DNA of 64,000 bases from a virus: positions 25,041 through 89,040 of the IMG/VR virus record IMGVR_UViG_3300032213_002091; one strand, written 5' to 3'. A model generated the notes under the pieces. The model was not told the DNA's origin. It did not search any database and saw nothing but the letters and a program-made list of their open reading frames with translations. The position numbers and the translations under genes were made by a program. Positions 2,519-63,976 of the stretch are shown piece after piece (within the stretch, counting starts at the first letter, position 1; each line of letters opens with the position of its first letter).

Positions 2519-2527
2519 GGGTAAAAC
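2519..2527 (+). promoter_or_regulatory. GGGTAAAA box (putative late promoter), unit 2549 onward
   Basis: GGGTAAAAC 14 nt after the stop of the adhesin gene and 30 nt before the ATG at 2549. It is one of a series of identical boxes at the same position relative to virion genes. No Shine-Dalgarno sequence precedes the ATG. Confidence 0.6.
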
Positions 2528-9942: not shown

Positions 9943-10842
9943 ATGTATTTCGATTTTACCCACCAGCCTGTGTTCGTTGAGAGTGGGGTAAAATTCACTG
10001 TACGAGTTGCCCTTCCAACCATGACTCGTTCCATTCGTTCTGAAGGGGGTGATAAGGATGTAATCCTGTTAAGCAGCAAAGTGTATGACCTACCCACCGA
10101 CTGTATCACTCCCTTAAACATGTTAGATTCAAAGACAAAGCGCAAGGCTCGCCGTGCTGAAAATGCCCAGATGCTAGAACAATCCTACCACAAAGGAATG
10201 GATGTCATGCCTCCCAAGTTTCTGACTTGGCGGCAAGAAGATCTGTGGAATTCCCTCAAGAAAAACACTGTTACTCTCGCCCATGGCTGTGCCGGAACCG
10301 GGAAAACGCTGATTGCGTTGCATTACGGATTGTATGGTGTCGCCTCCGGCGATTTCAACAAAGTGTACTACGTTCGAAGTGACGTGGGTGTTGAATTCCA
10401 GCGCGGGCGCGGAGCGCTGCCTGGAGACCTTTCCGAGAAGATCGCACCCCTGATTGCGCCTGTTCTTGACAACTTGCCCTGCATCATGAGATCGCACGGT
10501 GCAAGTGAGTACCTGCTGAACAAGAAAATTATCGAGCCTGTTCTCCTGGAAGACATTCGGGGACGCTCACTCAACGAGGCTTTCATCATTGTTGATGAGG
10601 CTCAGAATTTCCTCCCTTCACAAATCAAAACCGTCCTGACTCGCGTCGGCAAAGATTCGAAGATCCTTCTGATTGGTGACACGAAGCAGACCGATATGGA
10701 AGTGTTTCGAAGGGAAAATGGTTTGGTCGACGCTATTCACCGACTGCGCCACCTGTCGGAAGTTGGAATCGTAGAGTTCTCAAAAGAGGACATCGTTCGT
10801 AACTCCGTTATCGCTCACATTCTCGACCGTTACGAAGACTGA
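9943..10842 (+). CDS. phoH: PhoH-like ATPase
   Basis: 299 aa from ATG 9943, which has an AAGGGGA upstream, or 273 aa from ATG 10021, the start predicted by the internal GGGTAAAA box. Walker A GCAGTGKT at about residue 115-122, Walker B IIVDEAQN at about 213-220, and sensor segment LLIGDTKQTD. PhoH is a P-loop ATPase/RNA helicase-related family common in marine phages; its role is unsettled. Divergent from the desaturase pair. Confidence 0.92.
   Translation: MYFDFTHQPVFVESGVKFTVRVALPTMTRSIRSEGGDKDVILLSSKVYDLPTDCITPLNMLDSKTKRKARRAENAQMLEQSYHKGMDVMPPKFLTWRQEDLWNSLKKNTVTLAHGCAGTGKTLIALHYGLYGVASGDFNKVYYVRSDVGVEFQRGRGALPGDLSEKIAPLIAPVLDNLPCIMRSHGASEYLLNKKIIEPVLLEDIRGRSLNEAFIIVDEAQNFLPSQIKTVLTRVGKDSKILLIGDTKQTDMEVFRRENGLVDAIHRLRHLSEVGIVEFSKEDIVRNSVIAHILDRYED
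9954..9961 (-). promoter_or_regulatory. GGGTAAAA box on minus strand for the desaturase pair
   Basis: TTTTACCC on the plus strand reads GGGTAAAA on the minus strand, 39 nt before the GTG at 9922 and inside the start of the phoH frame. It is the only exact inverted copy I noticed in the window, and it sits where the plus-strand boxes sit relative to their genes. Confidence 0.6.
9986..9993 (+). promoter_or_regulatory. GGGTAAAA box inside the 5' end of phoH
   Basis: GGGTAAAA 35 nt before an in-frame ATG at 10021 (residue 27 of the longer phoH frame). With the inverted box at 9954-9961 it forms a divergent pair separated by 24 bp. Confidence 0.45.
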
Positions 10843-13270: not shown

Positions 13271-13279
13271 GGGTAAAAC
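13271..13279 (+). promoter_or_regulatory. GGGTAAAA box before 13302
   Basis: GGGTAAAAC immediately after TAA 13268-13270 and 31 nt before the ATG. Leader lacks a Shine-Dalgarno. Confidence 0.6.
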
Positions 13280-23651: not shown

Positions 23652-23660
23652 GGGTAAAAC
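23652..23660 (+). promoter_or_regulatory. GGGTAAAA box before 23687
   Basis: GGGTAAAAC 9 nt after TGA 23641-23643 and 35 nt before the ATG. Confidence 0.6.
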
Positions 23661-29527: not shown

Positions 29528-29576
29528 GGGTAAAATTGCCTCAGTTGAACTGGAGAAGTTGGCTCGCCTCAACTTC
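29528..29576 (+). promoter_or_regulatory. GGGTAAAA box and leader hairpin before 29604
   Basis: GGGTAAAA 29528-29535, 76 nt before the ATG, the longest such leader. GAAGTTG (29555-29561) pairs with CAACTTC (29570-29576); no T-run follows, so it is more likely a leader structure than a terminator. Confidence 0.55.
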
Positions 29577-36177: not shown

Positions 36178-36185
36178 GGGTAAAA
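36178..36185 (+). promoter_or_regulatory. GGGTAAAA box before 36212
   Basis: GGGTAAAA 34 nt before the ATG. The 39-nt spacer after the previous stop also holds two copies of TCAAGACTTA (36147-36156 and 36161-36170). Confidence 0.6.
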
Positions 36186-38967: not shown

Positions 38968-39571
38968 GGAACTTGCCCGTTTTCGGGAGAGCGCAACCGA
39001 ATGGGCCAAAGAACGCCTCGCCGATGCGTCCACAGTCATAATTGACACGGAAACCACCGGCCTGCCAAGCAAAGATCCCGACACCGAAATTTGCCAGTTG
39101 GCGATTACCGACGTCAAGGGTCGCCCGCTCTTCTCGATGCTGGTGAAACCCAACAAGCCGATGAACGACGAGGTGATTGCGATTCACGGTATCACCAACG
39201 AACAAGTTCAAAACCAGCCCATCTTCTCTCAAATTGCCAAGATGGTCGCCTTCGTTCTTGAGGGCAAGCACGTTGTTTGCTGGAACAGTGACTTCGACGT
39301 GAAACTTCTGTGGTCTCTCTTCAAGAAGTACGACCAAAAACTGCCGAAGATTGCCGGTGCATCCTGCGCGATGGACCAGTATTCCGAGTGGGTTGGCGAG
39401 TGGAACGCGAAGAAAGAAGGTTTCAAATGGCAGCGCCTTCCCGCCCTTTCCGGAATGCCAGCTCACGACGCTTTCGCAGACTGCCTTTCAACCATCAAAG
39501 TGATTGAGATGATGGCGGGATCGGTGAGCAAGGAAGAACTCAACGCTGAGGATATTGACCTCGACTTCTGA
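38951..39571 (+). CDS. DnaQ-like 3'-5' exonuclease (DEDDh)
   Basis: 206 aa from ATG 38951. ExoI IIDTETTG (about 30-37), ExoII CWNSDFDVKLL, ExoIII AHDAFADC with the His typical of DEDDh enzymes. Homologous to polymerase proofreading subunits and RNase T. It ends in an acidic peptide EDIDLDF like the SSB-like protein at 49170, possibly a shared docking tail. Role: proofreading or end trimming in phage replication or recombination. Confidence 0.85.
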   Translation: MKPTTEELARFRESATEWAKERLADASTVIIDTETTGLPSKDPDTEICQLAITDVKGRPLFSMLVKPNKPMNDEVIAIHGITNEQVQNQPIFSQIAKMVAFVLEGKHVVCWNSDFDVKLLWSLFKKYDQKLPKIAGASCAMDQYSEWVGEWNAKKEGFKWQRLPALSGMPAHDAFADCLSTIKVIEMMAGSVSKEELNAEDIDLDF

Positions 39572-39599
39572 TTTACACGTGGCACTCTTCCCCTATACT
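39572..39599 (+). promoter_or_regulatory. TTTACA-N16-TATACT promoter
   Basis: TTTACA 39572-39577 directly after the exonuclease stop, TATACT 39594-39599, ATG 25 nt further at 39624. Confidence 0.6.
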
Positions 39600-50154: not shown

Positions 50155-50181
50155 CCCTGGCCTTACCGGCTGGGGCTTTTT
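50155..50181 (+). terminator. intrinsic terminator after the SSB-like gene
   Basis: CCCTGGCC (50155-50162) pairs with GGCTGGGG (50168-50175; two G-T pairs) around loop TTACC, followed by CTTTTT (50176-50181). A Rho-independent terminator layout. Confidence 0.75.
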
Positions 50182-50189
50182 GCTATACT
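50163..50189 (+). promoter_or_regulatory. promoter overlapping the terminator (TTACC-N16-TATACT)
   Basis: TTACC at 50163-50167 is exactly the loop of the terminator; TATACT at 50184-50189 follows the T-run; ATG 50219 is 29 nt further, with a CCCAAACTAAAAC leader. Confidence 0.55.
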
Positions 50190-53507: not shown

Positions 53508-53508
53508 G

Positions 53509-53535
53509 TTTACCGGGCTTCGGCCCGCCTATACT
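53509..53535 (+). promoter_or_regulatory. TTTACC-N15-TATACT promoter with hairpin in the spacer
   Basis: TTTACC 53509-53514, TATACT 53530-53535, ATG 53557. The spacer contains CGGGC-TTCG-GCCCG (53514-53527), a stable UUCG-type hairpin overlapping the TTTACC, as if terminator and promoter share the site. Confidence 0.65.
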
Positions 53536-54800: not shown

Positions 54801-54807
54801 GGCGGAT

Positions 54808-54830
54808 AACCGCCCCATGTCTGGGCGGTT
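54808..54830 (+). terminator. intrinsic hairpin after the Zn-ribbon gene
   Basis: AACCGCCC (54808-54815), loop CATGTCT, GGGCGGTT (54823-54830): perfect 8-bp stem followed by TACCCCCTTT. GGCGG at 54801-54805 offers an alternative pairing with CCGCC. The TT of the stem end begins a TTTACC (54829-54834). Confidence 0.7.
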
Positions 54831-54838
54831 TACCCCCT

Positions 54839-54866
54839 TTGCAAACTGGCCGAAAAGCGGTATACT
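54839..54866 (+). promoter_or_regulatory. sigma70-like promoter of the first sigma-factor gene
   Basis: TTGCAA 54839-54844, 16 nt, TATACT 54861-54866, then ATG 54878 or 54887. The TTTACC seen elsewhere is present but 26 nt from the -10, so the TTGCAA is the better -35. Confidence 0.5.
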
Positions 54867-54886: not shown

Positions 54887-55477
54887 ATGAGTAACGACCA
54901 AACCTTCTACGACGCTGTCAAGGGCGACGCCCGCGCTGTCACTCAAGTGATTAAACAATACACTCCGCTAGTTCATAAACTGGTGAACAAATACGCCTGG
55001 ATGGCCCCGAAGCACAGCCGAGAGGATCTTGTGCAAGAGGGTTTGCTGGGAATTGTTAAAGCAATCGAAACCTTTGATGCTGACAAAGGTTGCAAGCCGA
55101 TGACCTGGATTTACCCTCAAGTTCGTGGAGCTGTTCAAGGTCTAGCGCGAAAAGAAAACCGAAATCCAAAGTATCCCCTGTCGCTTGAACAGTCGGATTG
55201 GGCGAAGAATCTTGAGGATCCCAATCAGTTTGAAGTTCGCGACGAGATTGCTTCCGCCCGAATTCGTGACATTGTTCTGTCCGGTTGCGGTTCCCTCGAC
55301 AGCAAACGAGCGCAAATTGTTTGTGCCCGTTACGGCCTTCTCGGAGAGAAAGGACTTCGTCAGGGGGAGGTTGCCCAGAAGTTCGGAATGTCGAAGCAAG
55401 CGATCAACTCGCATATCTCACGTTTCACCCGAATTGTGCGCGAAAAGCACCCGGAACTGGAGGCTTTGATTCAGTGA
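54887..55477 (+). CDS. sigma70-family RNA polymerase sigma factor (first)
   Basis: 196 aa from ATG 54887 (ATG 54878 also possible). Region 2 is clear: HKLVNKYAWMAPKHSREDLV, QEGLLGIVKAIETFDADKGC, PMTWIYPQVRGAVQGLARKE. Region 4 HTH: RQGEVAQKFGMSKQAINSHI, then SRFTRIVREKHPEL. A complete small sigma factor, the functional counterpart of T4 gp55 in cyanophages. It could redirect host RNA polymerase to the GGGTAAAA boxes. Confidence 0.85.
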   Translation: MSNDQTFYDAVKGDARAVTQVIKQYTPLVHKLVNKYAWMAPKHSREDLVQEGLLGIVKAIETFDADKGCKPMTWIYPQVRGAVQGLARKENRNPKYPLSLEQSDWAKNLEDPNQFEVRDEIASARIRDIVLSGCGSLDSKRAQIVCARYGLLGEKGLRQGEVAQKFGMSKQAINSHISRFTRIVREKHPELEALIQ

Positions 55478-55698
55478 CAAAGCTTCTGGTTGTCGTCCCG
55501 TTTTTACTAGCTCAGCACGGGTCGATTGATCCCTTTGTGTTTGGGCAGACGTACTGCTTTCTTCGACAACAAGGAGTTTCTGAACGAACTGCAATCAACC
55601 AAGCTGTGGATGAGGCTTGGCGCCCAAATCGAACCTCGGAAATGTTGAAAATTGACGTTCCTGTGGCTAAACAATTTATCGAAACAAATTGCCAATGA
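55474..55698 (+). CDS. small protein after the sigma factor
   Basis: 74 aa from GTG 55474 (overlaps the sigma stop, GTGA). Helical, with a hydrophobic start (TKLLVVVPFLLAQHG) that could insert in the membrane but is short. Not recognised. Confidence 0.5.
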   Translation: MTKLLVVVPFLLAQHGSIDPFVFGQTYCFLRQQGVSERTAINQAVDEAWRPNRTSEMLKIDVPVAKQFIETNCQ

Positions 55699-55928
55699 CT
55701 GAACCTCTCTCCCCCTCCGCGCAGGCCGTGTTGGATGCCGCCGACTCCGCATTTGACCAAGCCGGAACAACTCGCCAAGGCATCGCCGCCGCCCTCCGCG
55801 CTGCTGCGGATCAAGTGGCCTCCAGTGATGCAATGGAGCCGCGTAACCACATACCCATGGCGCTTGAGTGCCAACGCATCCGCAAAGAACTACTAACCAT
55901 CGCCGCCGAGCTGGAGGGTTTTAACTAA
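55695..55928 (+). CDS. GC-rich small protein (LSPxAQAVLDA/AALRAAADQV type)
   Basis: 77 aa from ATG 55695 (shares ATGA-type overlap). LSPSAQAVLDAAD and GIAAALRAAADQV are a family I recall from Synechococcus-type genomes and their phages; ends in TIAAELEG. Codon use here is much more GC-rich than in the flanking genes. Part of a 1.4-kb foreign-looking patch. Confidence 0.6.
   Translation: MTEPLSPSAQAVLDAADSAFDQAGTTRQGIAAALRAAADQVASSDAMEPRNHIPMALECQRIRKELLTIAAELEGFN
55896..55919 (+). repeat. 24-bp direct repeat, copy 1
   Basis: Exact 24-bp sequence encoding TIAAELEG, repeated at 56330-56353. The two copies bracket the gene at 55928. Confidence 0.85.
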
Positions 55929-56365
55929 TGTCACCTTGTTCATCCTGTATTCATTATCGGGTAGCTATAGGTGGTCTGCACCCCATTGAAAGCTGGTGTG
56001 CTATCTCGGGAGAATGGTTAAGTGCCAGAGACGTATGGCACAATAACCCTGAAGCACACACCGGAGTTTGGGGAGTGAAAACAAATAACATTCCCGAGTG
56101 TAAGTTCACTATGTCTGCCCGTGAGGTTGGCGAATACGACGAATGGTATGCTTCAAAGATCACTATGTACTACCGGGAGAATCGTGGAGGGTACAAAGGT
56201 TTCCACAACGATTGGCGCAATAGCCACTGGCTAGATACTTTCATCGAAGAAAGGGAAGTAGCATTAAACAACCGAAAAAGATTTTGGCCTGGTAACGATC
56301 TTGCACACTTTGTACAACGACAACCCCCCACCATCGCCGCCGAGCTGGAGGGTGGCAATGACTGA
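55928..56365 (+). CDS. Cys/His-containing protein between direct repeats
   Basis: 145 aa (TAATG start). CSSCIHYRVAIGG, SWCAISGEW and PECKFTM give four Cys resembling a small treble-clef or Zn-site. The body is less GC-rich than its flanks, but the last 13 residues (PTIAAELEGGND) are encoded by the second 24-bp repeat and so duplicate the end of the preceding protein. Looks like a gene inserted by repeat-mediated recombination. Confidence 0.6.
   Translation: MSPCSSCIHYRVAIGGLHPIESWCAISGEWLSARDVWHNNPEAHTGVWGVKTNNIPECKFTMSAREVGEYDEWYASKITMYYRENRGGYKGFHNDWRNSHWLDTFIEEREVALNNRKRFWPGNDLAHFVQRQPPTIAAELEGGND
56330..56353 (+). repeat. 24-bp direct repeat, copy 2
   Basis: Identical to 55896-55919; lies 5 nt before the ATG of the DUF551-like gene. 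Confidence 0.85.
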
Positions 56366-57020
56366 TTGGCAGGACAGAGACAATGGCGATGCAGTGCTTG
56401 ACGGCTGGTACGCAATCCTCGTCTCTTGGGGAACTCCGTGGGAAGAAGATACGCCAGATGTTCTTCTATTCAGGGATGGAGCATGGGTGCAACGGCAAAA
56501 AGACTGCAGTCTTCCAAACTTTTATTACTTTCAAGGACCATTTCAAAGCTCCATGGAAGCTCGCGATTGGGGTCACGCGCATGACGGGGTTGGCAAGTAT
56601 TTTGCAGAACGTGCCGAGGAGGCACTCCGCGCCCGCGCCGCCCTAGCCCAGCCGGTGGGGGAGGGGCCGACGGACAAGGAGCTTCTGGGGTGGATGCTGA
56701 AGGCTGCCGCTTCAGTTCCTGGCGGGCAATGCACCGGCATCCTGGACTGGGATAAAGAGGCCGTAGCCGCCGCCCGCGCCGTCCTCGCCCGCTATGGCCG
56801 CCCCGCCATCGAGCCGGTGCCGGTGAGCGAGCGCCCGCCGGGGCCGGAGGATTGCGATGGGGAGGGGAGGTGTTGGTTGCAACAACCTCATCCCGCAACA
56901 CCAGAAACTCCCGAATGGAGGTTGATGCCCGCCAGGTACGCCAGCACCCTTTACGGCACAACCCACTGGCTCCCCCACTGGGCGCTGCCGGTGCCTGGGG
57001 TGGAGGGTGCCGATGCTTAA
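56358..57020 (+). CDS. chimeric protein with DUF551-like C-terminus
   Basis: 220 aa from ATG 56358. N-terminal 90 residues (DNGDAVLDGWYAILVSWGTP) have phage-like composition; from about residue 92 (EEALRARAALAQPVGEGPTD) onward the DNA turns very GC-rich and ends in VSERPPGPEDCDGEGRCW...THWLPHWALPVPG, a DUF551-type closing. The junction suggests a fusion of two segments of different origin. Confidence 0.6.
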   Translation: MTDWQDRDNGDAVLDGWYAILVSWGTPWEEDTPDVLLFRDGAWVQRQKDCSLPNFYYFQGPFQSSMEARDWGHAHDGVGKYFAERAEEALRARAALAQPVGEGPTDKELLGWMLKAAASVPGGQCTGILDWDKEAVAAARAVLARYGRPAIEPVPVSERPPGPEDCDGEGRCWLQQPHPATPETPEWRLMPARYASTLYGTTHWLPHWALPVPGVEGADA

Positions 57021-57162
57021 CGCCCTGCTCGCCCTCGCCCTGCTGCTCGTCCTTGCCCTGTGGTTCACCCTCGGCGCAGCGGTTGAGCTGTGCATCAAGG
57101 TGACCTTCGTGCGCCTGTTGCCACTCCTGCTAAGATTGCCACCACCGGAGGCGGATCAGTGA
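57013..57162 (+). CDS. small membrane protein (49 aa)
   Basis: ATG 57013 overlaps the previous gene by 8 nt; stop overlaps the next GTG. N-terminal hydrophobic helix LNALLALALLLVLALWFTLG (residues about 2-21), then a second weaker one and a proline-rich tail. Same GC-rich patch. Possible holin-type or unknown. Confidence 0.45.
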   Translation: MLNALLALALLLVLALWFTLGAAVELCIKVTFVRLLPLLLRLPPPEADQ

Positions 57163-57290
57163 CTAACAAACAACTGTATACTCTTTGTGGCGTGATTACT
57201 TTGTCTGCAGCGTATATTACGAACAGCACATTTCTGAGTGTGTTTGCGTTTTTGTGGTTCGTTTCTTCACTAGTTAGTAAAAATGACTAA
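57159..57290 (+). CDS. small membrane protein (43 aa)
   Basis: GTG 57159 overlaps the previous TGA. Two short hydrophobic helices (LCGVITLSAAYITN, FLSVFAFLWFVSSLV). Overlaps the next ATG by 8 nt. No recognised family; AT-rich again, marking the end of the GC-rich patch. Confidence 0.45.
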   Translation: MTNKQLYTLCGVITLSAAYITNSTFLSVFAFLWFVSSLVSKND

Positions 57291-57639
57291 TTCAACCACG
57301 GGTAAAACTTTCATTGTCACGAAGGTCTACGACGAGGACTGCGATGTTTGCAAACACATGAGCAAACATGATCGAGCAGTGTACGAAGGTTTTTCGGAAG
57401 TTGCTTATCAGGAAGTTAACCTGAATGACGTAATCAACCACGACAACGACTTTACGAAACTCCGTTTGTACCAGTGCCTTGAGCGCTATGCGCTTAACAA
57501 CGACTACACGATCGACCTTCCTGTTTACGTGTATTTAACGAAACAGGGGAAGTACGTGGGACACCACATCGGTTCAGCAACTGTTGTCGAACTTCGTGAA
57601 AAAACAAAAGAAATCCTCGAAGACTGTTTACCAGAGTAA
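57283..57639 (+). CDS. thioredoxin-like protein
   Basis: 118 aa. An N-terminal CxxC (DEDCDVCKHM, residues about 19-28) after the first strand and a cis-Pro-type IDLPVYVYL followed by GKYVGHHIG match the thioredoxin/glutaredoxin fold. Could reduce RNR or other phage enzymes; the NrdA in the window has its own glutaredoxin domain. Confidence 0.75.
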   Translation: MTNSTTGKTFIVTKVYDEDCDVCKHMSKHDRAVYEGFSEVAYQEVNLNDVINHDNDFTKLRLYQCLERYALNNDYTIDLPVYVYLTKQGKYVGHHIGSATVVELREKTKEILEDCLPE

Positions 57640-57673
57640 ATCCTGAGGAGAATAACTACTCAGTGTATAGTCT

Positions 57674-58297
57674 ATGTACCACATTCTTTACAACTCTTTT
57701 GAAGAAAGACCGGGTGGGAGAGACTATATCGGTGCCCATAGCACTGATAACTTGAACGACGGGTACTTGGGTTCTTTCTCGGACCCAACTTTCGAACCTA
57801 CTGCTAAAATCATCATTTCTTTTCACCCTGACAGAGAATCTCTGATGAGGGCAGAAATGCACCTCCAGCGACTACTCAAGGTTGTAGAAGATCCCCAATA
57901 TGCAAACCGTGCTTACCAAACCTCGTCAGGTTTTTCAACTCAGGGGTTAAAACACTTAAGTGGGTGGAAATGGAGTGAAGAAGCGAAAGAGAGGCGAAGG
58001 GGAGAAGGAAACCCCATGTTTGGGAAGTCTCGCGAAAGGAGTCTTGACAGCTCCCTTGCCTTAGAAACCAAACAGAAAATGCGGGAAAAGAAGTTGGGTG
58101 AAAACAACCCAATGTATGGCAGGTCGGGTGAGTTGAGTCCAACTTACGGCAGAGTGAAGTCAAAGGCGGAAATAGAATCTCGTCGTGGTAAAATGAAGAA
58201 AAAACGATGGTTTGTAAACCCTGATGGGGAAACTAAAATGTTTGACACACAACCTCAGGGCGAATGGCGTCCTGGACGCCTTTGGGAGGAAGACTGA
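57674..58297 (+). CDS. GIY-YIG-like homing endonuclease with NUMOD3 repeats
   Basis: 207 aa. YIGAHSTDNLNDGYLGSF near the start is the phage GIY-YIG-type nuclease segment (seg-like); the second half has NUMOD3-type repeats (GEGNPMFGKS, GENNPMYGRSGELSPTYGRV) that bind DNA. A free-standing mobile gene next to speD, with TATAGT (57666-57671) 3 nt before its ATG. Its end overlaps an alternative start of speD. Confidence 0.75.
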   Translation: MYHILYNSFEERPGGRDYIGAHSTDNLNDGYLGSFSDPTFEPTAKIIISFHPDRESLMRAEMHLQRLLKVVEDPQYANRAYQTSSGFSTQGLKHLSGWKWSEEAKERRRGEGNPMFGKSRERSLDSSLALETKQKMREKKLGENNPMYGRSGELSPTYGRVKSKAEIESRRGKMKKKRWFVNPDGETKMFDTQPQGEWRPGRLWEED

Positions 58298-58299
58298 CG

Positions 58300-58626
58300 T
58301 TGGGACATCACGTACTTGTATCCCTTTACGGGATAGCTTTTAACTTGTTGGATGATTCTAACGGGATTAAACAGGCTTTTGAGAAAGCTGTGGAAGTTTG
58401 CGGCGCAACCGTTCTCAACCGGTTTTCTCACCAGTTTTTCCCTCAAGGCGTAACAATCGTTTACGCTCTCGCAGAAAGTCACATTAGCATTCACACTTTC
58501 CCGGAGAGAGGGTGTTGCGCAATCGACGTATACACCTGCGGGGACATGAATTCGCGAGAAGGAATGCAAGTCTTGATTGACTACTTTCAACCAATTGAAA
58601 TTTCAATGCAGGAGATCAACAGATGA
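58300..58626 (+). CDS. speD: S-adenosylmethionine decarboxylase proenzyme
   Basis: 108 aa from TTG 58300, with GGAGGAAG 9-16 nt upstream; ATG 58264 would lie inside the previous gene and add 12 residues not seen in the family. The self-cleavage site ALAESHISIHTFPE has the pyruvoyl-forming Ser60; GHHVLVSLYG at the start and CAIDVYTCGD complete the SpeD pattern. Makes decarboxylated SAM for polyamine synthesis, known in cyanophages. Confidence 0.9.
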   Translation: MGHHVLVSLYGIAFNLLDDSNGIKQAFEKAVEVCGATVLNRFSHQFFPQGVTIVYALAESHISIHTFPERGCCAIDVYTCGDMNSREGMQVLIDYFQPIEISMQEINR

Positions 58627-58772
58627 CAAGTAAAAAGAAACTGGCTAAAGAAGCTCTCAAGAATCCCGAGCTTTTCTCATTCGGCGAGCTGGCATTCTTT
58701 CGCAAATGGCTAGAACACCGTCGCCTGCGAAAGCTCCAGAAAAAAGAGCAGAAGAACAAAGATGAGGCGTGA
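58623..58772 (+). CDS. small basic helical protein (49 aa)
   Basis: ATGA overlap with speD. LAFFRKWLEHRRLRKLQKKE gives a strongly basic amphipathic helix. Too short to classify. Confidence 0.5.
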   Translation: MTSKKKLAKEALKNPELFSFGELAFFRKWLEHRRLRKLQKKEQKNKDEA

Positions 58773-58774
58773 CG

Positions 58775-58801
58775 TTTACTTTTGTAACTAACCCCTATAC
58801 T
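58775..58801 (+). promoter_or_regulatory. TTTACT-N15-TATACT promoter of hli
   Basis: TTTACT 58775-58780, TATACT 58796-58801, then CTAAACTAATG leading to ATG 58826, 25 nt after the -10. Confidence 0.65.
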
Positions 58802-58825
58802 GGTGATGTCCTACGCGCTAAACTA

Positions 58826-59023
58826 ATGACAGTCACTTCCAACGAGCTGGGACAGCAAAACATCTTCGCAAAAGAACCTCCAATTACCATGGTTGACCAT
58901 CCTTACGGCGTTCCTCACAACGAACGCGCAGAAAAACTGAATGGCCGCATCGCAATGCTTGGTGTCATCGCTGCTCTTGGCGCCTATGCCCTAACCGGGC
59001 AGATCATTCCTGGAATTTGGTGA
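58826..59023 (+). CDS. hli: high-light-inducible protein
   Basis: 65 aa from ATG 58826, downstream of the promoter (GTG 58769 would lie before it). Single transmembrane helix with the chlorophyll-binding motif ERAEKLNGRIAMLGVIAALG and a GAYALTGQIIPGIW tail. Photoprotection of host photosystem II during infection; a hallmark of cyanophages. Confidence 0.95.
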   Translation: MTVTSNELGQQNIFAKEPPITMVDHPYGVPHNERAEKLNGRIAMLGVIAALGAYALTGQIIPGIW

Positions 59024-59268
59024 CACAAATGTGGTGGCCAACCCTCGAATCGCTCAAAGATCTTACGGTTGAAGAAACTGAAGAAGGGTTCGATCTTTCC
59101 GCTCCGGACGGCTCCGAGTGCGGACTCTGGTTGGCCCACTTTTCCGAGACGGAAGAGCTTAGACAAGAGTTTCAAGCAGAGCTAGAGACCTGTATACTTA
59201 ACTACATCAAGGAACACGATGTCAAAAATGAAGTCCCCGACCGGTCAGAAAGTGGTTGTTCGGGTTGA
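59020..59268 (+). CDS. acidic protein, unknown function
   Basis: 82 aa from GTG 59020 (overlaps the hli stop), or 79 aa from ATG 59029. Trp-rich start (WWPTLESLKDLTVEETEEGF), acidic, helical end. Contains the promoter of the next gene. Not recognised. Confidence 0.5.
   Translation: MTQMWWPTLESLKDLTVEETEEGFDLSAPDGSECGLWLAHFSETEELRQEFQAELETCILNYIKEHDVKNEVPDRSESGCSG
59172..59198 (+). promoter_or_regulatory. possible internal promoter (TATACT)
   Basis: TATACT 59193-59198, 21 nt before ATG 59219, with TTTCAA about 16 nt upstream. Lies inside the preceding gene. Confidence 0.4.
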
Positions 59269-59362
59269 AAAGAAAACGGCGCAGGGCCGTTCTCGCAATA
59301 CGAATCTTGCTGCAACGCCGAACCGGGGAAGGAAACGCCGGTATCGGGGCCAAGGTTCATGA
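59219..59362 (+). CDS. small Arg/Lys-rich protein (47 aa)
   Basis: ATG 59219 (overlaps the previous gene by 50 nt). Strongly basic: TAQGRSRNTNLAATPNRGRK then RRYRG; likely nucleic-acid binding. Stop overlaps the next ATG (ATGA). A similar short protein is likely conserved in cyanophages near nrd genes, from memory only. Confidence 0.5.
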   Translation: MSKMKSPTGQKVVVRVEKKTAQGRSRNTNLAATPNRGRKRRYRGQGS

Positions 59363-59673
59363 GCCTAACACAGTTGAACCCCCCATTGCCCCTAGAAACT
59401 CCGAAAGGGAAAGGGTGGGCTCACGCTGTTATCGACTATTCACAGGAGCACGATCTTCTGTGGATGGTCTTTTTGAACGAGGGTGGTGAATGCTGGTGCT
59501 TCCCGAACTCGGATATTCGCATGGTTAACAATTTCTCTCTTGGTCGTTATGTCCCTGATTATCAGTCTTACCGTAGCTTCGGCAGTGGGAACCCTCCTTG
59601 GCAATCTCAGCCTGTTCATGATAATCGGCGCGATGGCGGAGAGGCAACAAAAGAAACAACAAAGGGAACTTGA
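59359..59673 (+). CDS. conserved phage protein of unknown function
   Basis: 104 aa. Residues about 8-65 (PPLPLETPKGKGWAHAVIDY, EHDLLWMVFLNEGGECWCFP, NSDIR) match a small phage family of unknown function with a conserved G-E-C-W segment. The C-terminal 40 residues, overlapping the next gene, are low complexity. Confidence 0.6.
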   Translation: MSLTQLNPPLPLETPKGKGWAHAVIDYSQEHDLLWMVFLNEGGECWCFPNSDIRMVNNFSLGRYVPDYQSYRSFGSGNPPWQSQPVHDNRRDGGEATKETTKGT

Positions 59674-59752
59674 GCGCATGCAGAACGCATTCCTGGAGAT
59701 GCGACAGAAAGAAACCGAGCGACTGTATCGCTACGCACAAATGGAAAGCTAA
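59549..59752 (+). CDS. small membrane protein with cytosolic basic helix
   Basis: 67 aa from ATG 59549 (GTG 59483 alternative). TM helix SLIISLTVASAVGTLLGNLS then a charged helix (RQQKKQQRELERMQNAFLEM). Overlaps the previous gene by 125 nt in another frame. Function unknown. Confidence 0.45.
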   Translation: MSLIISLTVASAVGTLLGNLSLFMIIGAMAERQQKKQQRELERMQNAFLEMRQKETERLYRYAQMES

Positions 59753-59754
59753 GG

Positions 59755-59782
59755 TTTACCGCCCGGTTTTCGAGCCTATATT
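59755..59782 (+). promoter_or_regulatory. TTTACC-N16-TATATT promoter
   Basis: TTTACC 59755-59760, TATATT 59777-59782, GTG start 59806 24 nt on. Likely drives the RNR unit. Confidence 0.6.
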
Positions 59783-59805
59783 AAACTCACCTGTTCCAAA
59801 CCCCT

Positions 59806-60447
59806 GTGAACATTTTCGCTGTAAACAACGACCCTCGCCTCGCCGCCAAAGACCTACCCGACAAACTCATAGTGAAAATGCCCACGGAGTCGCTTCAACT
59901 GCTGACCCCATGGGCTTTCAACACGCATGGGGTTAAAATCGAAAAGCCGGGGCAAAAAGAACTCTTTGAATCCGATAAAAAATACTACGGCATCAAAGGA
60001 TTCGCTCACCATCCCTGTGCAAAGTGGCTCTACGAAAGTCCCGCGAACGTTCATTGGTTGCTTGAACATGCTTTTGGCATGGCCGACGAGTATTGGCAGC
60101 GTTATGACAAATACCACGGAACTCTACACGGACTAAACCAAATCAGAACTCTGGTGTACACCAATCACAACAAAGATTACTCCCGAGACCACACCGAGTT
60201 TGTCCAAGCAATGCCCGAGGAGTTCAAAGTTCCTGACGACCCTGTAACTGCATACCGCAACTACGTCAACGGTTACAAAGGTTACGCCGAGTGGCGTTAC
60301 AGTGAGAAACCAGACTGGTGGGATGAAACAAAGCACGAACCTGTGCGCAAACAGTATCTCGCCGAGCGAGAAGAAAAACGCCTGAAACGTAAGAATGACA
60401 AGTATCCGCGAGTACCGGCAACCCTACAAAGTGAACGGGAAATTTGA
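59806..60447 (+). CDS. conserved phage protein, sometimes annotated as DNA glycosylase-like
   Basis: 213 aa from GTG 59806. NIFAVNNDPRLAAKDLPDKL, VKMPTESLQLL and HHPCAKWLYESPANVHWLLE match a phage family that begins NIF-x-DP...DKHVVKM and continues HPC-x-W; its function is not settled. The basic C-terminus overlaps nrdB by 53 nt. I recall glycosylase-type annotations but do not rely on them. Confidence 0.6.
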   Translation: MNIFAVNNDPRLAAKDLPDKLIVKMPTESLQLLTPWAFNTHGVKIEKPGQKELFESDKKYYGIKGFAHHPCAKWLYESPANVHWLLEHAFGMADEYWQRYDKYHGTLHGLNQIRTLVYTNHNKDYSRDHTEFVQAMPEEFKVPDDPVTAYRNYVNGYKGYAEWRYSEKPDWWDETKHEPVRKQYLAEREEKRLKRKNDKYPRVPATLQSEREI

Positions 60448-61372
60448 ATTCCCCGAGTTTTTCGAAGCCTACCACAAGGCTCAATCGTCTCAATGGCGCC
60501 CTCAAGAGGCTTCCTTTGAGAGTGACATTCGCGACTGGCAAAACGCAAGCCAGGACGAACGGGAAATCGTGGGTGGTATCCTCCGAGGATTTACCCAACT
60601 TGAGTGCCATGTTAGCGATTACTGGTCAAACATTCCAGCATGGTTCCCCAAACACGAGGTTGCTGCAGTCGCAAGAGCTTTCGCTCTTTCGGAAATTGTT
60701 CATGCTGAGGCGTACAATCTGCTATCCGACACTCTTGGGTTAGATGAGTTTGAAGCATTCCTTGGCGACCCAATCGCCCAACAAAAGATCGGATACTTCC
60801 TTGAAAATCGAGGAGTTAAGGAGTCTCTTGCTGTGTTCAGCGGTGCTGGGGAAGGTGTTTCTCTATTCAGTTCTTTTGCTGTTCTTCTCTCCCTTAACCT
60901 TACTGGGCGTTTCAAGGGAATCGCTCAAATCATTTCTTGGTCGGCTCTTGATGAGCAGCAACATTCAGAAACCGGAATAGCCCTGTTCAACCAGTTGGTG
61001 AAAGAAGAGGGCCTGGGTGAAATCGAGGAATACAACATCGTTCGCGGTTTCGATGAAGTTGTGAAGAACGAGCTGGTTTTTCTGGACAACATCTTCAAAG
61101 GCCGAAAGCTCAGCACCATCGACAAATACGACGTTGAGAACTACCTTTATTACCGCGCAAACGACCGGCTCATGCGTTTGAACATTGGCAAAAGATACAC
61201 CTACGATGAAGCTGCCGCCACGCGAATCAAGGAGTGGTTTCACCCGATCATGGAAGGTGCGACCAGCACAGACTTCTTCGCCCAAGCCAAAGATGGAAGC
61301 AACTATGTTTCCAAACCCACTCAAGATTTCATGGGTGTTAACCTCAAGACGCTAGACCTGAACCTCGTATGA
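60395..61372 (+). CDS. nrdB: class I ribonucleotide reductase small subunit
   Basis: 325 aa. Iron/radical site EIVHAEAY gives E-x-x-H with Tyr four residues after the His, as in E. coli Y122; second ligand pair SALDEQQHSETG. Supplies the radical for NrdA. The start ATG 60395 overlaps the previous gene; upstream in-frame alternatives are worse. Stop overlaps nrdA (ATGA). Confidence 0.93.
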   Translation: MTSIREYRQPYKVNGKFEFPEFFEAYHKAQSSQWRPQEASFESDIRDWQNASQDEREIVGGILRGFTQLECHVSDYWSNIPAWFPKHEVAAVARAFALSEIVHAEAYNLLSDTLGLDEFEAFLGDPIAQQKIGYFLENRGVKESLAVFSGAGEGVSLFSSFAVLLSLNLTGRFKGIAQIISWSALDEQQHSETGIALFNQLVKEEGLGEIEEYNIVRGFDEVVKNELVFLDNIFKGRKLSTIDKYDVENYLYYRANDRLMRLNIGKRYTYDEAAATRIKEWFHPIMEGATSTDFFAQAKDGSNYVSKPTQDFMGVNLKTLDLNLV

Positions 61373-63297
61373 CCGAACCAATCGCCCCCAAGTGGCTTTC
61401 CAACGAAGGAATGCACACTTTATCCGCAGGCTATTTGCTGCCTGGGGAAACTCCCCGTGCGATGTTTCAACGGGTTTCCCGTGCAGCGTCCGTAATTAAC
61501 GAAGACGAAACCCTTTATGACGACCTTTTTACTTGCCTTTGGAATGGGTGGCTGGGTCTGGCTTCTCCCGTCGCTGCTAATTTTGGGACCTCACGAGCCC
61601 TTCCCATATCTTGCTACTCTGTACACCCTAGCGATTCTGTTAGCAGTATTTACTCACATCTCAAAGAAGTCGCGCAGCTGAGCAAAAACGGTGGCGGTGT
61701 TGGGGTTTATTTTGGCGATGTACGCCCTGCTGGCGCTCCTATTACAGGTGGTGGAAAGTCTACAGGGATAGTTCCCTGGGCGCAGCAGTACGACCTCTGC
61801 GCTCGAGTTGTATCGCAGGGCGGAGTTCGTCGAGGATCATTCGCAATCTACCTCCCGATTGATCACCCCGACGTTCCCGAACTGCTTCGATCTAAGGATC
61901 ACACGAAGGGAGATCCTCGAAAGTTTATCGACTCAAACGTGGCCTTAACAATCACGGATGAGTGGGTTGAATCGATGATCGCCGGTGACAATGAGAAACA
62001 AGAACTCTTCGGAGAAGTTCTGAAGACAAGACTGATCTCTGGTTCTCCCTACTTGGTTTTCATTGACAACGCTAATCGGCAAAACCCGGAGTGCTACACT
62101 GAGCGTGGCCTCTCCGTGAAAACCTCAAATCTTTGCTCAGAAATCTTCCTTCACACCGATGAGTATCATTCGTTCGTCTGCGTCCTCAGCAGCCTCAATC
62201 TTAGTCGGTACGACGAGTTTAGTGATTGGAAATCTCCTACTACTGGACGTACGGTCCCCGAACTCGCGATTCATCTCCTCGATGCAGTCGTTTCGGAATT
62301 CATTCGCAAGGCAAAAGACAAAGTTGGACTCGGTCGCTCCGTTCGCTTCGCTGAGAAAAGCCGGGCACTAGGTCTTGGCACAATGGGCCTTCACACACTG
62401 TACCAGAAACGTGGATTACCTTTCAGCTCGCCTGGCGCTCGTGAACTCAACATCGAAACGCATAAGTGGATTCGAGAGCGAGCTGAAGTTGCCTCACGAG
62501 AACTGGCACAGAAGTTTGGGGAGCCCGAATGGTGCGTGGGGTCCGGTAGACGCCATACTCATCTTATTGCTGTTGCTCCTACTCGGACCAATAGTGTTAT
62601 TAGTGGAGCGTTTAGCCAAGGTATTGAGCCAATCGATTCAAACTATTTTGTTGCGAAACAAGCCAAAGGAACTTACGTTCGAAAGAACCCTGTTCTAGAA
62701 AAGCTTCTTTGTGAACGCGGAGTCAGCGAAGGGATTTGGGAGCAGATTCTGACAGCAAAGGGGAGTGTTCAGGACCTTACCGTTCTGAGTGACGAGGAGA
62801 AAGAAATCTTCAAAACAGCTCGAGAAATTGACCAGTTTGAACTGGTGAAGCAAGCAGCTGATCGTCAACCGTTTATCTGCCAAGGGCAAAGTTTGAATCT
62901 GTTTGTAGACCCGGAATCTGACGCCGCATATATCACTCGCCTTCACCTTTCTGCCTGGAAAATGGGACTGAAATCCCTGTACTACCTAAAGTCAAGTTCT
63001 TTGCTAACGAATAAAAAGGTGGTGCCAGCGCTGGTGGTTACAAAAGAAGGTTGCCCGTGGTGCGTCAAACTGAAAGACGAACTTCAGAAGAGAAACATTG
63101 TTTTCGAGGAAATCTCAAAACAAGAGGCTCAAGATAGAGGATATTGGAACCCTGAATGGCAGACAGTTCCCCAGCTTTGGCTATACAAGAAGCACATTGG
63201 CGGCTATACTGACTTCATGGCTCACACCGAAAAAGCCGAAATTCCTCAAGAAACTGGGACAACAAACTATGCTGAATGCACTTCCTGCGAAGCCTAA
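61369..63297 (+). CDS. nrdA: ribonucleotide reductase large subunit with nested glutaredoxin domain
   Basis: 642 aa. Catalytic N254, C256 and E258 (SNLCSEIF), redox pair C82 (PISCYS) and C271 (FVCVLSSLNLS), APTRTNSVISGAFSQGIEP late motif. No N-terminal ATP-cone, so allosteric activity control is probably absent. Residues about 552-625 form a glutaredoxin domain (TKEGCPWCVKL, TVPQLWLYKKHIGGYTDF) placed before the C-terminal AECTSCEA tail that normally carries the swinging-arm cysteines. The main body is shorter than usual class Ia NrdA. Confidence 0.92.
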   Translation: MTEPIAPKWLSNEGMHTLSAGYLLPGETPRAMFQRVSRAASVINEDETLYDDLFTCLWNGWLGLASPVAANFGTSRALPISCYSVHPSDSVSSIYSHLKEVAQLSKNGGGVGVYFGDVRPAGAPITGGGKSTGIVPWAQQYDLCARVVSQGGVRRGSFAIYLPIDHPDVPELLRSKDHTKGDPRKFIDSNVALTITDEWVESMIAGDNEKQELFGEVLKTRLISGSPYLVFIDNANRQNPECYTERGLSVKTSNLCSEIFLHTDEYHSFVCVLSSLNLSRYDEFSDWKSPTTGRTVPELAIHLLDAVVSEFIRKAKDKVGLGRSVRFAEKSRALGLGTMGLHTLYQKRGLPFSSPGARELNIETHKWIRERAEVASRELAQKFGEPEWCVGSGRRHTHLIAVAPTRTNSVISGAFSQGIEPIDSNYFVAKQAKGTYVRKNPVLEKLLCERGVSEGIWEQILTAKGSVQDLTVLSDEEKEIFKTAREIDQFELVKQAADRQPFICQGQSLNLFVDPESDAAYITRLHLSAWKMGLKSLYYLKSSSLLTNKKVVPALVVTKEGCPWCVKLKDELQKRNIVFEEISKQEAQDRGYWNPEWQTVPQLWLYKKHIGGYTDFMAHTEKAEIPQETGTTNYAECTSCEA

Positions 63298-63298
63298 G

Positions 63299-63976
63299 AT
63301 GACACGTCGTCGCAACAAAAAATACCCAAGACTGACGCCCGAGCAGCAGAAACTTGTGTCGGAACACACTTGGATCGCAGGCAGACTCGCCTACGGCGCA
63401 AAGTGTTTAACGGGGGGTCACACGGGTTCACTTACGCGGGAAGATCTTGAGTCGGTGGCAAAATTCGCGTTGTGCGTTGCCGCAACCCGTTACCGCTCCG
63501 ATATGGATGTTAAGTATAGCACTTACGCATGGAACACTGCTAGGGGTTACATTCAACACGCCCTCCGAGATTACTCTCGCATGGTACGGACACCGCGCTG
63601 GATTGCCAATTATCGAAACAAAGTGTCCGACCTCGTGAAAGAGGGCAAGACCTACAAGGAAATTGCCGATATTTTGGGCCTTGACGAGAGCAGAGTTCTC
63701 AACTGCGAGATGTCCGAGAACAATTACCACGTGTCTTACGATAGCTCGCCCGAGGACTGGAGCACTCCCGAGTTCGTCTACAACTTTGAAGAGCACAAGG
63801 CAACGTTGTTAAGCCCAAACCTCATTCACGAGATCCGCGCTTTGACGGACGCTGAGATGGTGATGCTGCTAAAGTACGTCGAGGGTGAGCCCATGAGTGA
63901 CGAGGAGAAGGAATACGCCGCAGAAAAATTCTTTGAACTTCAGGCGATTGCACATGGACTCCGAGAAGAACTTTGA
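63299..63976 (+). CDS. sigma70-family RNA polymerase sigma factor (second, divergent)
   Basis: 225 aa from ATG 63299 (1 nt after the nrdA TAA). Sigma region 2-like: LTREDLESVAKFALCVAATR and DVKYSTYAWNTARGYIQHAL; region 3/4-like: RTPRWIANYRNKVSDLVKEG, TYKEIADILGLDESRVL (HTH). Clearly different in sequence from the first sigma factor. A helical C-terminal domain (residues 160-225) is extra. Possible late or middle-phase sigma. Confidence 0.75.
   Translation: MTRRRNKKYPRLTPEQQKLVSEHTWIAGRLAYGAKCLTGGHTGSLTREDLESVAKFALCVAATRYRSDMDVKYSTYAWNTARGYIQHALRDYSRMVRTPRWIANYRNKVSDLVKEGKTYKEIADILGLDESRVLNCEMSENNYHVSYDSSPEDWSTPEFVYNFEEHKATLLSPNLIHEIRALTDAEMVMLLKYVEGEPMSDEEKEYAAEKFFELQAIAHGLREEL

What the first reader, a model, noticed from the sequence alone, without database searches (positions are those of the whole stretch)
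54887..63976. Two different sigma70-family factors alongside two promoter classes
The sigma genes at 54887 and 63299 share little sequence but both have region 2 and HTH features. The window also shows two promoter architectures: GGGTAAAA boxes for virion genes and TTTACC-N15-TATACT for metabolic genes. One sigma could read the GGGTAAAA class while the host or the other sigma reads the sigma70-like class. Two phage sigma factors in one cyanophage would be an unusual expression cascade.
Basis: inference. Interest (0 to 1): 0.8.

Follow-up and report, generated by a model that had tools for sequence, protein, structure and literature searches.

The report
Two sigma factors, three promoter types
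A cyanobacterial virus and its relatives carry two different transcription-starting (sigma) factors and three conserved promoter signals, which looks like a timed relay from host-read early genes to virus-read virion genes; the parts are clearly there, but which factor reads which signal has not been shown by experiment.

Summary
Both proteins are sigma70-family factors, and both are conserved as a pair: every relative long enough to show both has both, including the sequenced phage S-CBWM1, where both are already annotated as sigma factors. GGGTAAAA is real: 18 copies against 2.3 expected, and the commonest intergenic octamer in 7 of 9 relatives. It has a conserved A where transcription should start, no -35 box, and sits before virion genes. 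The "TTTACC-N15-TATACT" class is also real but mis-registered, and across relatives splits in two: (G/A)TTTAC-N16/17-TATA(C/A)T before DNA polymerase, primase, mazG, hli and the operon that ends in sigma2; and a dyad plus CTT(T/G)(A/C)C-N18-TATA(A/C)T, which drives sigma1 itself.

Sigma2 (63299) is nearest the SigB/SigF/SigG group, whose -10 box is GGGTAT or GGTAA, and has no recognisable -35-reading domain, fitting a -10-only promoter. Sigma1 (54887) keeps that domain. Best reading: the host makes sigma1 early, the middle class (read by sigma1 or host) makes sigma2, and sigma2 reads GGGTAAAA late. T4 gp55 and clamp were not found. Two-sigma phages are known, so this is a new variant of a known kind. 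The sigma-to-promoter assignments are inference.

The parts
54887..55477 (+). Sigma1: sigma70-family factor, region 2 + region 4, no region 3 (196 aa)
   Evidence: Pfam r2 3.6e-15 and r4 1.6e-4; NCBIfam sigma70-ECF 6e-18, above cut-off; AF2 model pLDDT 77, Foldseek hits are sigma factors
63299..63976 (+). Sigma2: SigB/SigF-like factor, regions 2 and 3, C-terminus without recognisable region-4 helix-turn-helix (225 aa)
   Evidence: SigBFG is the family with the best E-value among the 8 members, 2.8e-14; S. aureus SigB best solved sigma; C-terminal profile hits no sigma
54801..54834 (+). Two dyads upstream of sigma1 (GGCGGATAACCGCC and CGGTTTACC), the second degenerate
   Evidence: sequence; dyad CGGTNNNCCG precedes CTTKVC by 2 nt in relatives
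54837..54866 (+). Class A promoter of sigma1: CTTTGC-N18-TATACT
   Evidence: sequence; same place in relatives G005, G007, G008, G009
53508..53535 (+). Class B promoter GTTTAC-N16-TATACT upstream of mazG
   Evidence: conserved in G007, G009 and others
58774..58801 (+). Class B promoter GTTTAC-N16-TATACT upstream of hli
   Evidence: conserved in 5 genomes
59754..59782 (+). Class B promoter GTTTAC-N17-TATATT of the operon 59806-nrdB-nrdA-sigma2
   Evidence: conserved in 6 genomes; ORFs 59806-63976 overlap or abut
50161..50189 (+). Class B-like promoter CCTTAC-N17-TATACT upstream of primase
   Evidence: phylogenetic footprint
39571..39599 (+). Class B promoter ATTTAC-N17-TATACT
2519..2526 (+). 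Class C box GGGTAAAA, 30 nt before ATG 2549
9986..9993 (+). Class C box GGGTAAAA upstream of phoH-like gene; true start probably ATG about 10016
   Evidence: same box-ATG spacing in G002 and G003
13271..13278 (+). Class C box GGGTAAAA
14027..14034 (+). Class C box GGGTAAAA
14718..14725 (+). Class C box GGGTAAAA
17105..17112 (+). Class C box GGGTAAAA
19781..19788 (+). Class C box GGGTAAAA upstream of tail fibre / baseplate gene 19830
23652..23659 (+). Class C box GGGTAAAA
24076..24083 (+). Class C box GGGTAAAA upstream of tail fibre / baseplate gene 24135
29528..29535 (+). Class C box GGGTAAAA
30731..30738 (+). Class C box GGGTAAAA
33209..33216 (+). Class C box GGGTAAAA upstream of tail fibre gene 33245
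36178..36185 (+). Class C box GGGTAAAA
41777..41784 (+). Class C box GGGTAAAA
43996..44003 (+). Class C box GGGTAAAA upstream of gene 44027 (its C-terminal part matches the S-CBWM1 tape measure protein)

Best explanation
A phage-run sigma relay on host core RNA polymerase. (1) Host SigA holoenzyme reads class A promoters (dyad + CTT(T/G)(A/C)C-N18-TATA(A/C)T, the canonical sigma70 spacing) early, making sigma1. (2) Class B promoters ((G/A)TTTAC-N16/17-TATA(C/A)T), read by sigma1 holoenzyme or still by host SigA, express replication and metabolism genes and the operon 59806-nrdB-nrdA-sigma2. (3) Sigma2, a SigB/SigF-like factor without a recognisable -35-reading domain, directs core polymerase to the single-element promoter GGGTAAAA, with the start 7 nt past the box, switching on virion genes. 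Shown by computation: both protein families, three DNA element classes, their conservation and gene context. Inferred: every sigma-to-promoter assignment, the timing, and who reads class B.
For: Both sigmas co-occur in every contig that spans both loci: 9 of 13 (of the other four, two are cut short and two hold only distant sigma1 relatives), 12 of 12. GGGTAAAA is the top intergenic octamer in 7 of 9 genomes and almost only on the coding strand; pooled over 151 sites there is an A at offset +14 (100/151) and no upstream column above 0.12 bit beyond -1, with no strong k-mer signal upstream. The box lies before orthologous structural genes in the window's genome and S-CBWM1. Its end sits mostly 23-28 nt before start codons, like the -10 box of class B at 21-26 nt. 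Sigma2: SigBFG matches all 8 members and has the best E-value of any family, S. aureus SigB is the best solved sigma by sequence and, after a B. subtilis model, by structure. Known -10 boxes: SigB GGGTAT (PMC9847131), Synechocystis SigF GGTAA (PMC2758279). Its C-terminus hits no sigma4, while sigma1's does, weakly. Sigma1 sits behind class A, sigma2's operon behind class B. T4 gp55 and clamp families not found.
Against: No transcription data. The pair never separates, so presence/absence cannot assign readers. Sigma2's score to SigBFG (42 bits) is far below that family's cut-off (234). The AF2 models are of moderate confidence (pLDDT 71 and 77), with long low-confidence linkers. Picocyanobacteria carry their own SigF-like proteins, so a host reader of GGGTAAAA is not excluded. 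A minority of class B promoters read GTTTAC-N13/14-GGGTATAAT (12 of 68 have GGG before TATA), which resembles the full SigB consensus and blurs the split. The class statistics pool related genomes, and G007 breaks the spacing rule in part.
Confidence: 0.55

Rival explanations
1. Sigma1, not sigma2, reads GGGTAAAA, and sigma2 does something else, such as sequestering core polymerase or acting on few promoters.
For: Sigma1 is the stronger sigma by profile (3.6e-15) and also scores to SigBFG (1.7e-14, second to the ECF superfamily).
Against: Sigma1 keeps region 4, so a promoter class with no -35 box would not use it; sigma2 has SigBFG as best family and lacks a recognisable region 4. Sigma1's own promoter is of the early-looking class A.
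Confidence: 0.15
2. A host sigma, for example the SigF-like group 3 factor of picocyanobacteria, reads GGGTAAAA, and the phage sigmas serve other promoters.
For: All 9 picocyanobacterial genomes tested have SigF-like proteins, below the family cut-off; Synechocystis SigF uses GGTAA at -12 (PMC2758279).
Against: SigF promoters also need TAGGC at -32; TAGGC occurs 0 times in the 60 nt upstream of 151 boxes. S-PM2 and S-B68 stretches, also phages of Synechococcus, show no enrichment, and S-TIM5 only a slight one on both strands.
Confidence: 0.15
3. Class A and class B are both read by host SigA; sigma1 is a modifier or competitor, and only the late class depends on a phage sigma (sigma2). This differs from the best explanation only in step 2.
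For: Both classes carry sigma70-like -10 boxes, and their -35 boxes resemble T4 early promoters (general knowledge).
Against: The association of the first -35 base with spacing (2.6e-10) and of the dyad with class A only (16/21 vs 0/55, 2e-12) indicates two recognition modes; a spacing of 16 from GTTTAC is short for SigA.
Confidence: 0.4

Closest known systems
Synechococcus phage S-CBWM1 (NC_048106, Aokuangvirus)
   Same: Both sigma genes in the same neighbourhoods (49% and 56% identity), annotated as RNA polymerase sigma factors; GGGTAAAA before the same structural genes
   Different: No promoter classes annotated in the record; its original description is not in the held library
S. aureus / B. 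subtilis SigB and cyanobacterial SigF (group 3 sigma, SigBFG)
   Same: Regions 2-3 of sigma2; -10 box GGGTAT or GGTAA
   Different: Sigma2 lacks a recognisable region 4; its promoters lack the GTTTAA or TAGGC upstream box; score below the SigBFG cut-off
T4 gp55 late transcription
   Same: Single-element, -10-only late promoters before virion genes; a small phage sigma
   Different: No gp55 family match for sigma2 and no gp45 clamp found; different box (T4 TATAAATA)
phiEco32 gp36 (and 7-11 gp47)
   Same: phiEco32: phage sigma without region 4, single-element promoter, start 6-8 bp past the box (PMC8948821)
   Different: One phage sigma per phage; box tAATGTAtA
Bacillus phage SPO1 (gp28, gp33/34)
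   Same: Successive phage sigma factors giving middle and late genes (from general knowledge)
   Different: Unrelated boxes and host; not compared here

Membership tests
sigma70 family (both proteins) | Sigma70 region 2 | tested here: met
   Sigma1 above the Pfam cut-off; sigma2 below it in the window but above in G005, G006 and S-CBWM1
sigma70 family (both proteins) | Region 4 helix-turn-helix | tested here: inconclusive
   Sigma1: weak but consistent matches to sigma4. Sigma2: none at the C-terminus; single long helix 201-218 in the model
SigB/SigF/SigG (TIGR02980), sigma2 | Best-matching family | tested here: met
   Matches all 8 members with the best E-value of any family; SigB best solved sigma
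SigB/SigF/SigG (TIGR02980), sigma2 | Score above curated cut-off | tested here: not met
   42 bits against 234
SigB/SigF/SigG (TIGR02980), sigma2 | Two-box promoter with GTTTAA or TAGGC upstream | tested here: not met
   No upstream box at 151 GGGTAAAA sites; that these are sigma2's promoters is itself inferred
ECF / group 4 superfamily (TIGR02937), sigma1 | Score above cut-off; r2 + r4 without r3 | tested here: met
   65 bits against 42.9; layout
T4 gp55 late sigma | Match to gp55 family (phrog_234) | tested here: not met
   No hit in six of eight genomes, 11.9 bits at sigma1 in two; sigma2 none
T4 late system | gp45 sliding clamp (PF02916) | tested here: not met
   0 of 8 records; the control set holds no T4 phage, so sensitivity is unproven
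phiEco32 gp36 | Sequence homology | not tested
   Comparison is of behaviour only (PMC8948821)

The most novel reading that the evidence does not exclude
A three-tier relay in one cyanophage clade, in which each tier's promoter class drives the sigma factor that opens the next (A -> sigma1 -> B -> sigma2 -> C), ending in a SigB/SigF-derived sigma that lost its -35 domain and came, convergently with T4 gp55 and phiEco32 gp36, to read a single -10 box.
Probability: 0.35. Interest if true: 0.78.

Novelty: new variant of a known kind. Interest (0 to 1): 0.62.

Why it matters
Marine T4-like cyanophages are usually described with host sigma70 plus gp55. This clade appears to have replaced that with two sigma factors of its own and three sharp, easily scored promoter classes, so gene timing can be predicted from sequence and tested in S-CBWM1, which has a cultured host. 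It would also be a clean case of a full sigma factor shedding its -35 domain together with the -35 boxes of its promoters.

Tried and rejected
Looking for a -35 element upstream of GGGTAAAA, at fixed or variable spacing: none. Separating the two sigmas by presence/absence: within the clade they never separate except where contigs end. EM motif search in the window's own genome for the second class: not above shuffles; it needed the relatives. A bacterial relative of sigma2 by pattern scan: none. Host lacking SigF, as a way to exclude a host reader: hosts do have SigF-like proteins. The dyad alone is not enriched in the window's genome (1 vs 3.7 expected), so class A in the window rests on one site plus its relatives. 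Literature: GGGTAAAA is not described as a phage promoter in the held library; the original S-CBWM1 paper is not held.

Full report
The window is G000:C1:25041-89040 of an 89,040-base virus record. Its nearest named relative is Synechococcus phage S-CBWM1; protein-level synteny covers most of the genome, but there is no close DNA match. Both sigma ORFs exist at the stated coordinates.

The proteins. Sigma1 (54887-55477) has region 2 at 3.6e-15 and region 4 at 1.6e-4, fits the ECF-type superfamily above cut-off, and folds as two helical domains with a low-confidence linker; its structural hits are sigma factors. Sigma2 (63299-63976) is weak alone, but its family profile aligns over residues 11-153 with S. 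aureus SigB at 1.2e-8, ahead of FliA and SigA; SigBFG is the family with the best E-value over the 8 members, and the two best structural hits are a B. subtilis SigB model (entry labelled RPSB, read here as SigB) and the S. aureus SigB complex. By position, just after region 2, the helix-turn-helix in sigma2 is region 3, not region 4. The C-terminus (165-225) hits no sigma and is modelled with one long helix where region 4.2 should turn.

The pair. Both occur in S-CBWM1, in nine of the first contigs tested and in 12 of 12 further contigs. Exactly two region-2 proteins were found in each record that spans both loci.

GGGTAAAA. 18 in the window against 2.3 expected. In the whole record 21 of 24 + strand copies are intergenic against 0.5 expected, and in S-CBWM1 28 against 0.8. 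In nine genomes it is the top intergenic octamer in seven, second in G002, and in G006 relaxed to GGGTAA(A/G)N. Over 151 sites the only conserved flanks are not-T at -1, pyrimidines just after the box, and A at +14, as expected for a -10 box with the start 7 nt further on. No -35 signal was found. S-PM2 and S-B68 stretches show no enrichment; S-TIM5 shows 6 against 2.1, on both strands. In the window all boxes that precede genes lie in the structural part, between 2.5 and 44 kb.

The bipartite classes. Alignment of upstream regions across relatives showed conserved (G/A)TTTAC ... TATA(C/A)T before mazG, hli, primase and DNA polymerase. A scan gave 68 + strand hits, 0 minus. Tabulating -35 variant against spacing split them: C-first boxes prefer N18, G/A-first N16 or N17, and a dyad CGGTNNNCCG stands 2 nt before the C-first box only (16/21 vs 0/55). 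Of 78 dyads in nine genomes, 27 are followed at exactly +12 by CTTKVC and 25 of those by a TAnnnT at the right spacing. Class A drives sigma1 in several relatives; in the window its form is CTTTGC-N18-TATACT at 54837-54866. Class B at 59754 heads the operon 59806-nrdB-nrdA-sigma2, and the same class stands before the orthologue of 59806 in six genomes.

Mechanism. The layout reads as a relay: class A early (host), sigma1; class B middle; sigma2; class C late. The link sigma2 to GGGTAAAA rests on three separate facts: its nearest families read GGGTAT (PMC9847131) or GGTAA (PMC2758279); it has no recognisable region 4; and the promoters lack a -35. The same pairing of lost region 4 and lost -35 is documented for phiEco32 gp36 (PMC8948821). 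The link sigma1 to class B is weaker; the host could read both A and B. A host SigF-like reader cannot be excluded by absence, since picocyanobacteria have such proteins, but the TAGGC box is missing.

Limits. No expression data; moderate models; related genomes are pooled, so p-values overstate independence, although the spacing pattern shows in most single genomes. Gene calls outside S-CBWM1 come from a simple script.

Noticed in passing
relatives G002, G008, G009, G011, S-CBWM1: About a sixth of class B-type promoters read GTTTAC-N13/14-GGGTATAAT, resembling the full SigB consensus, before psbA, Hsp20 and the gene upstream of primase; they may serve both middle and late holoenzymes.
   Followed up: partly
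window 61369-63297: NrdA appears to carry a C-terminal glutaredoxin-like segment (VVTKEGCPWCVKLKDEL); the S-CBWM1 NrdA holds an intein.
   Followed up: no
S-CBWM1 (L001-L003) and G002: Repeated intergenic hairpin GGGCGG-TAAA-CCGCCCTTTAC, in about a fifth of S-CBWM1 intergenic stretches without GGGTAAAA; part of it is the class A dyad.
   Followed up: partly
L091, L092 (contigs of 277 and 279 kb): Contigs about twice the size of S-CBWM1 carry the same sigma pair once each: larger relatives or assembly joins.
   Followed up: no
G006: Box relaxed to GGGTAA(A/G)N (GGGTAAAC, GGGTAAGT), with sigma2 62% identical: a natural test of box-protein co-change.
   Followed up: no
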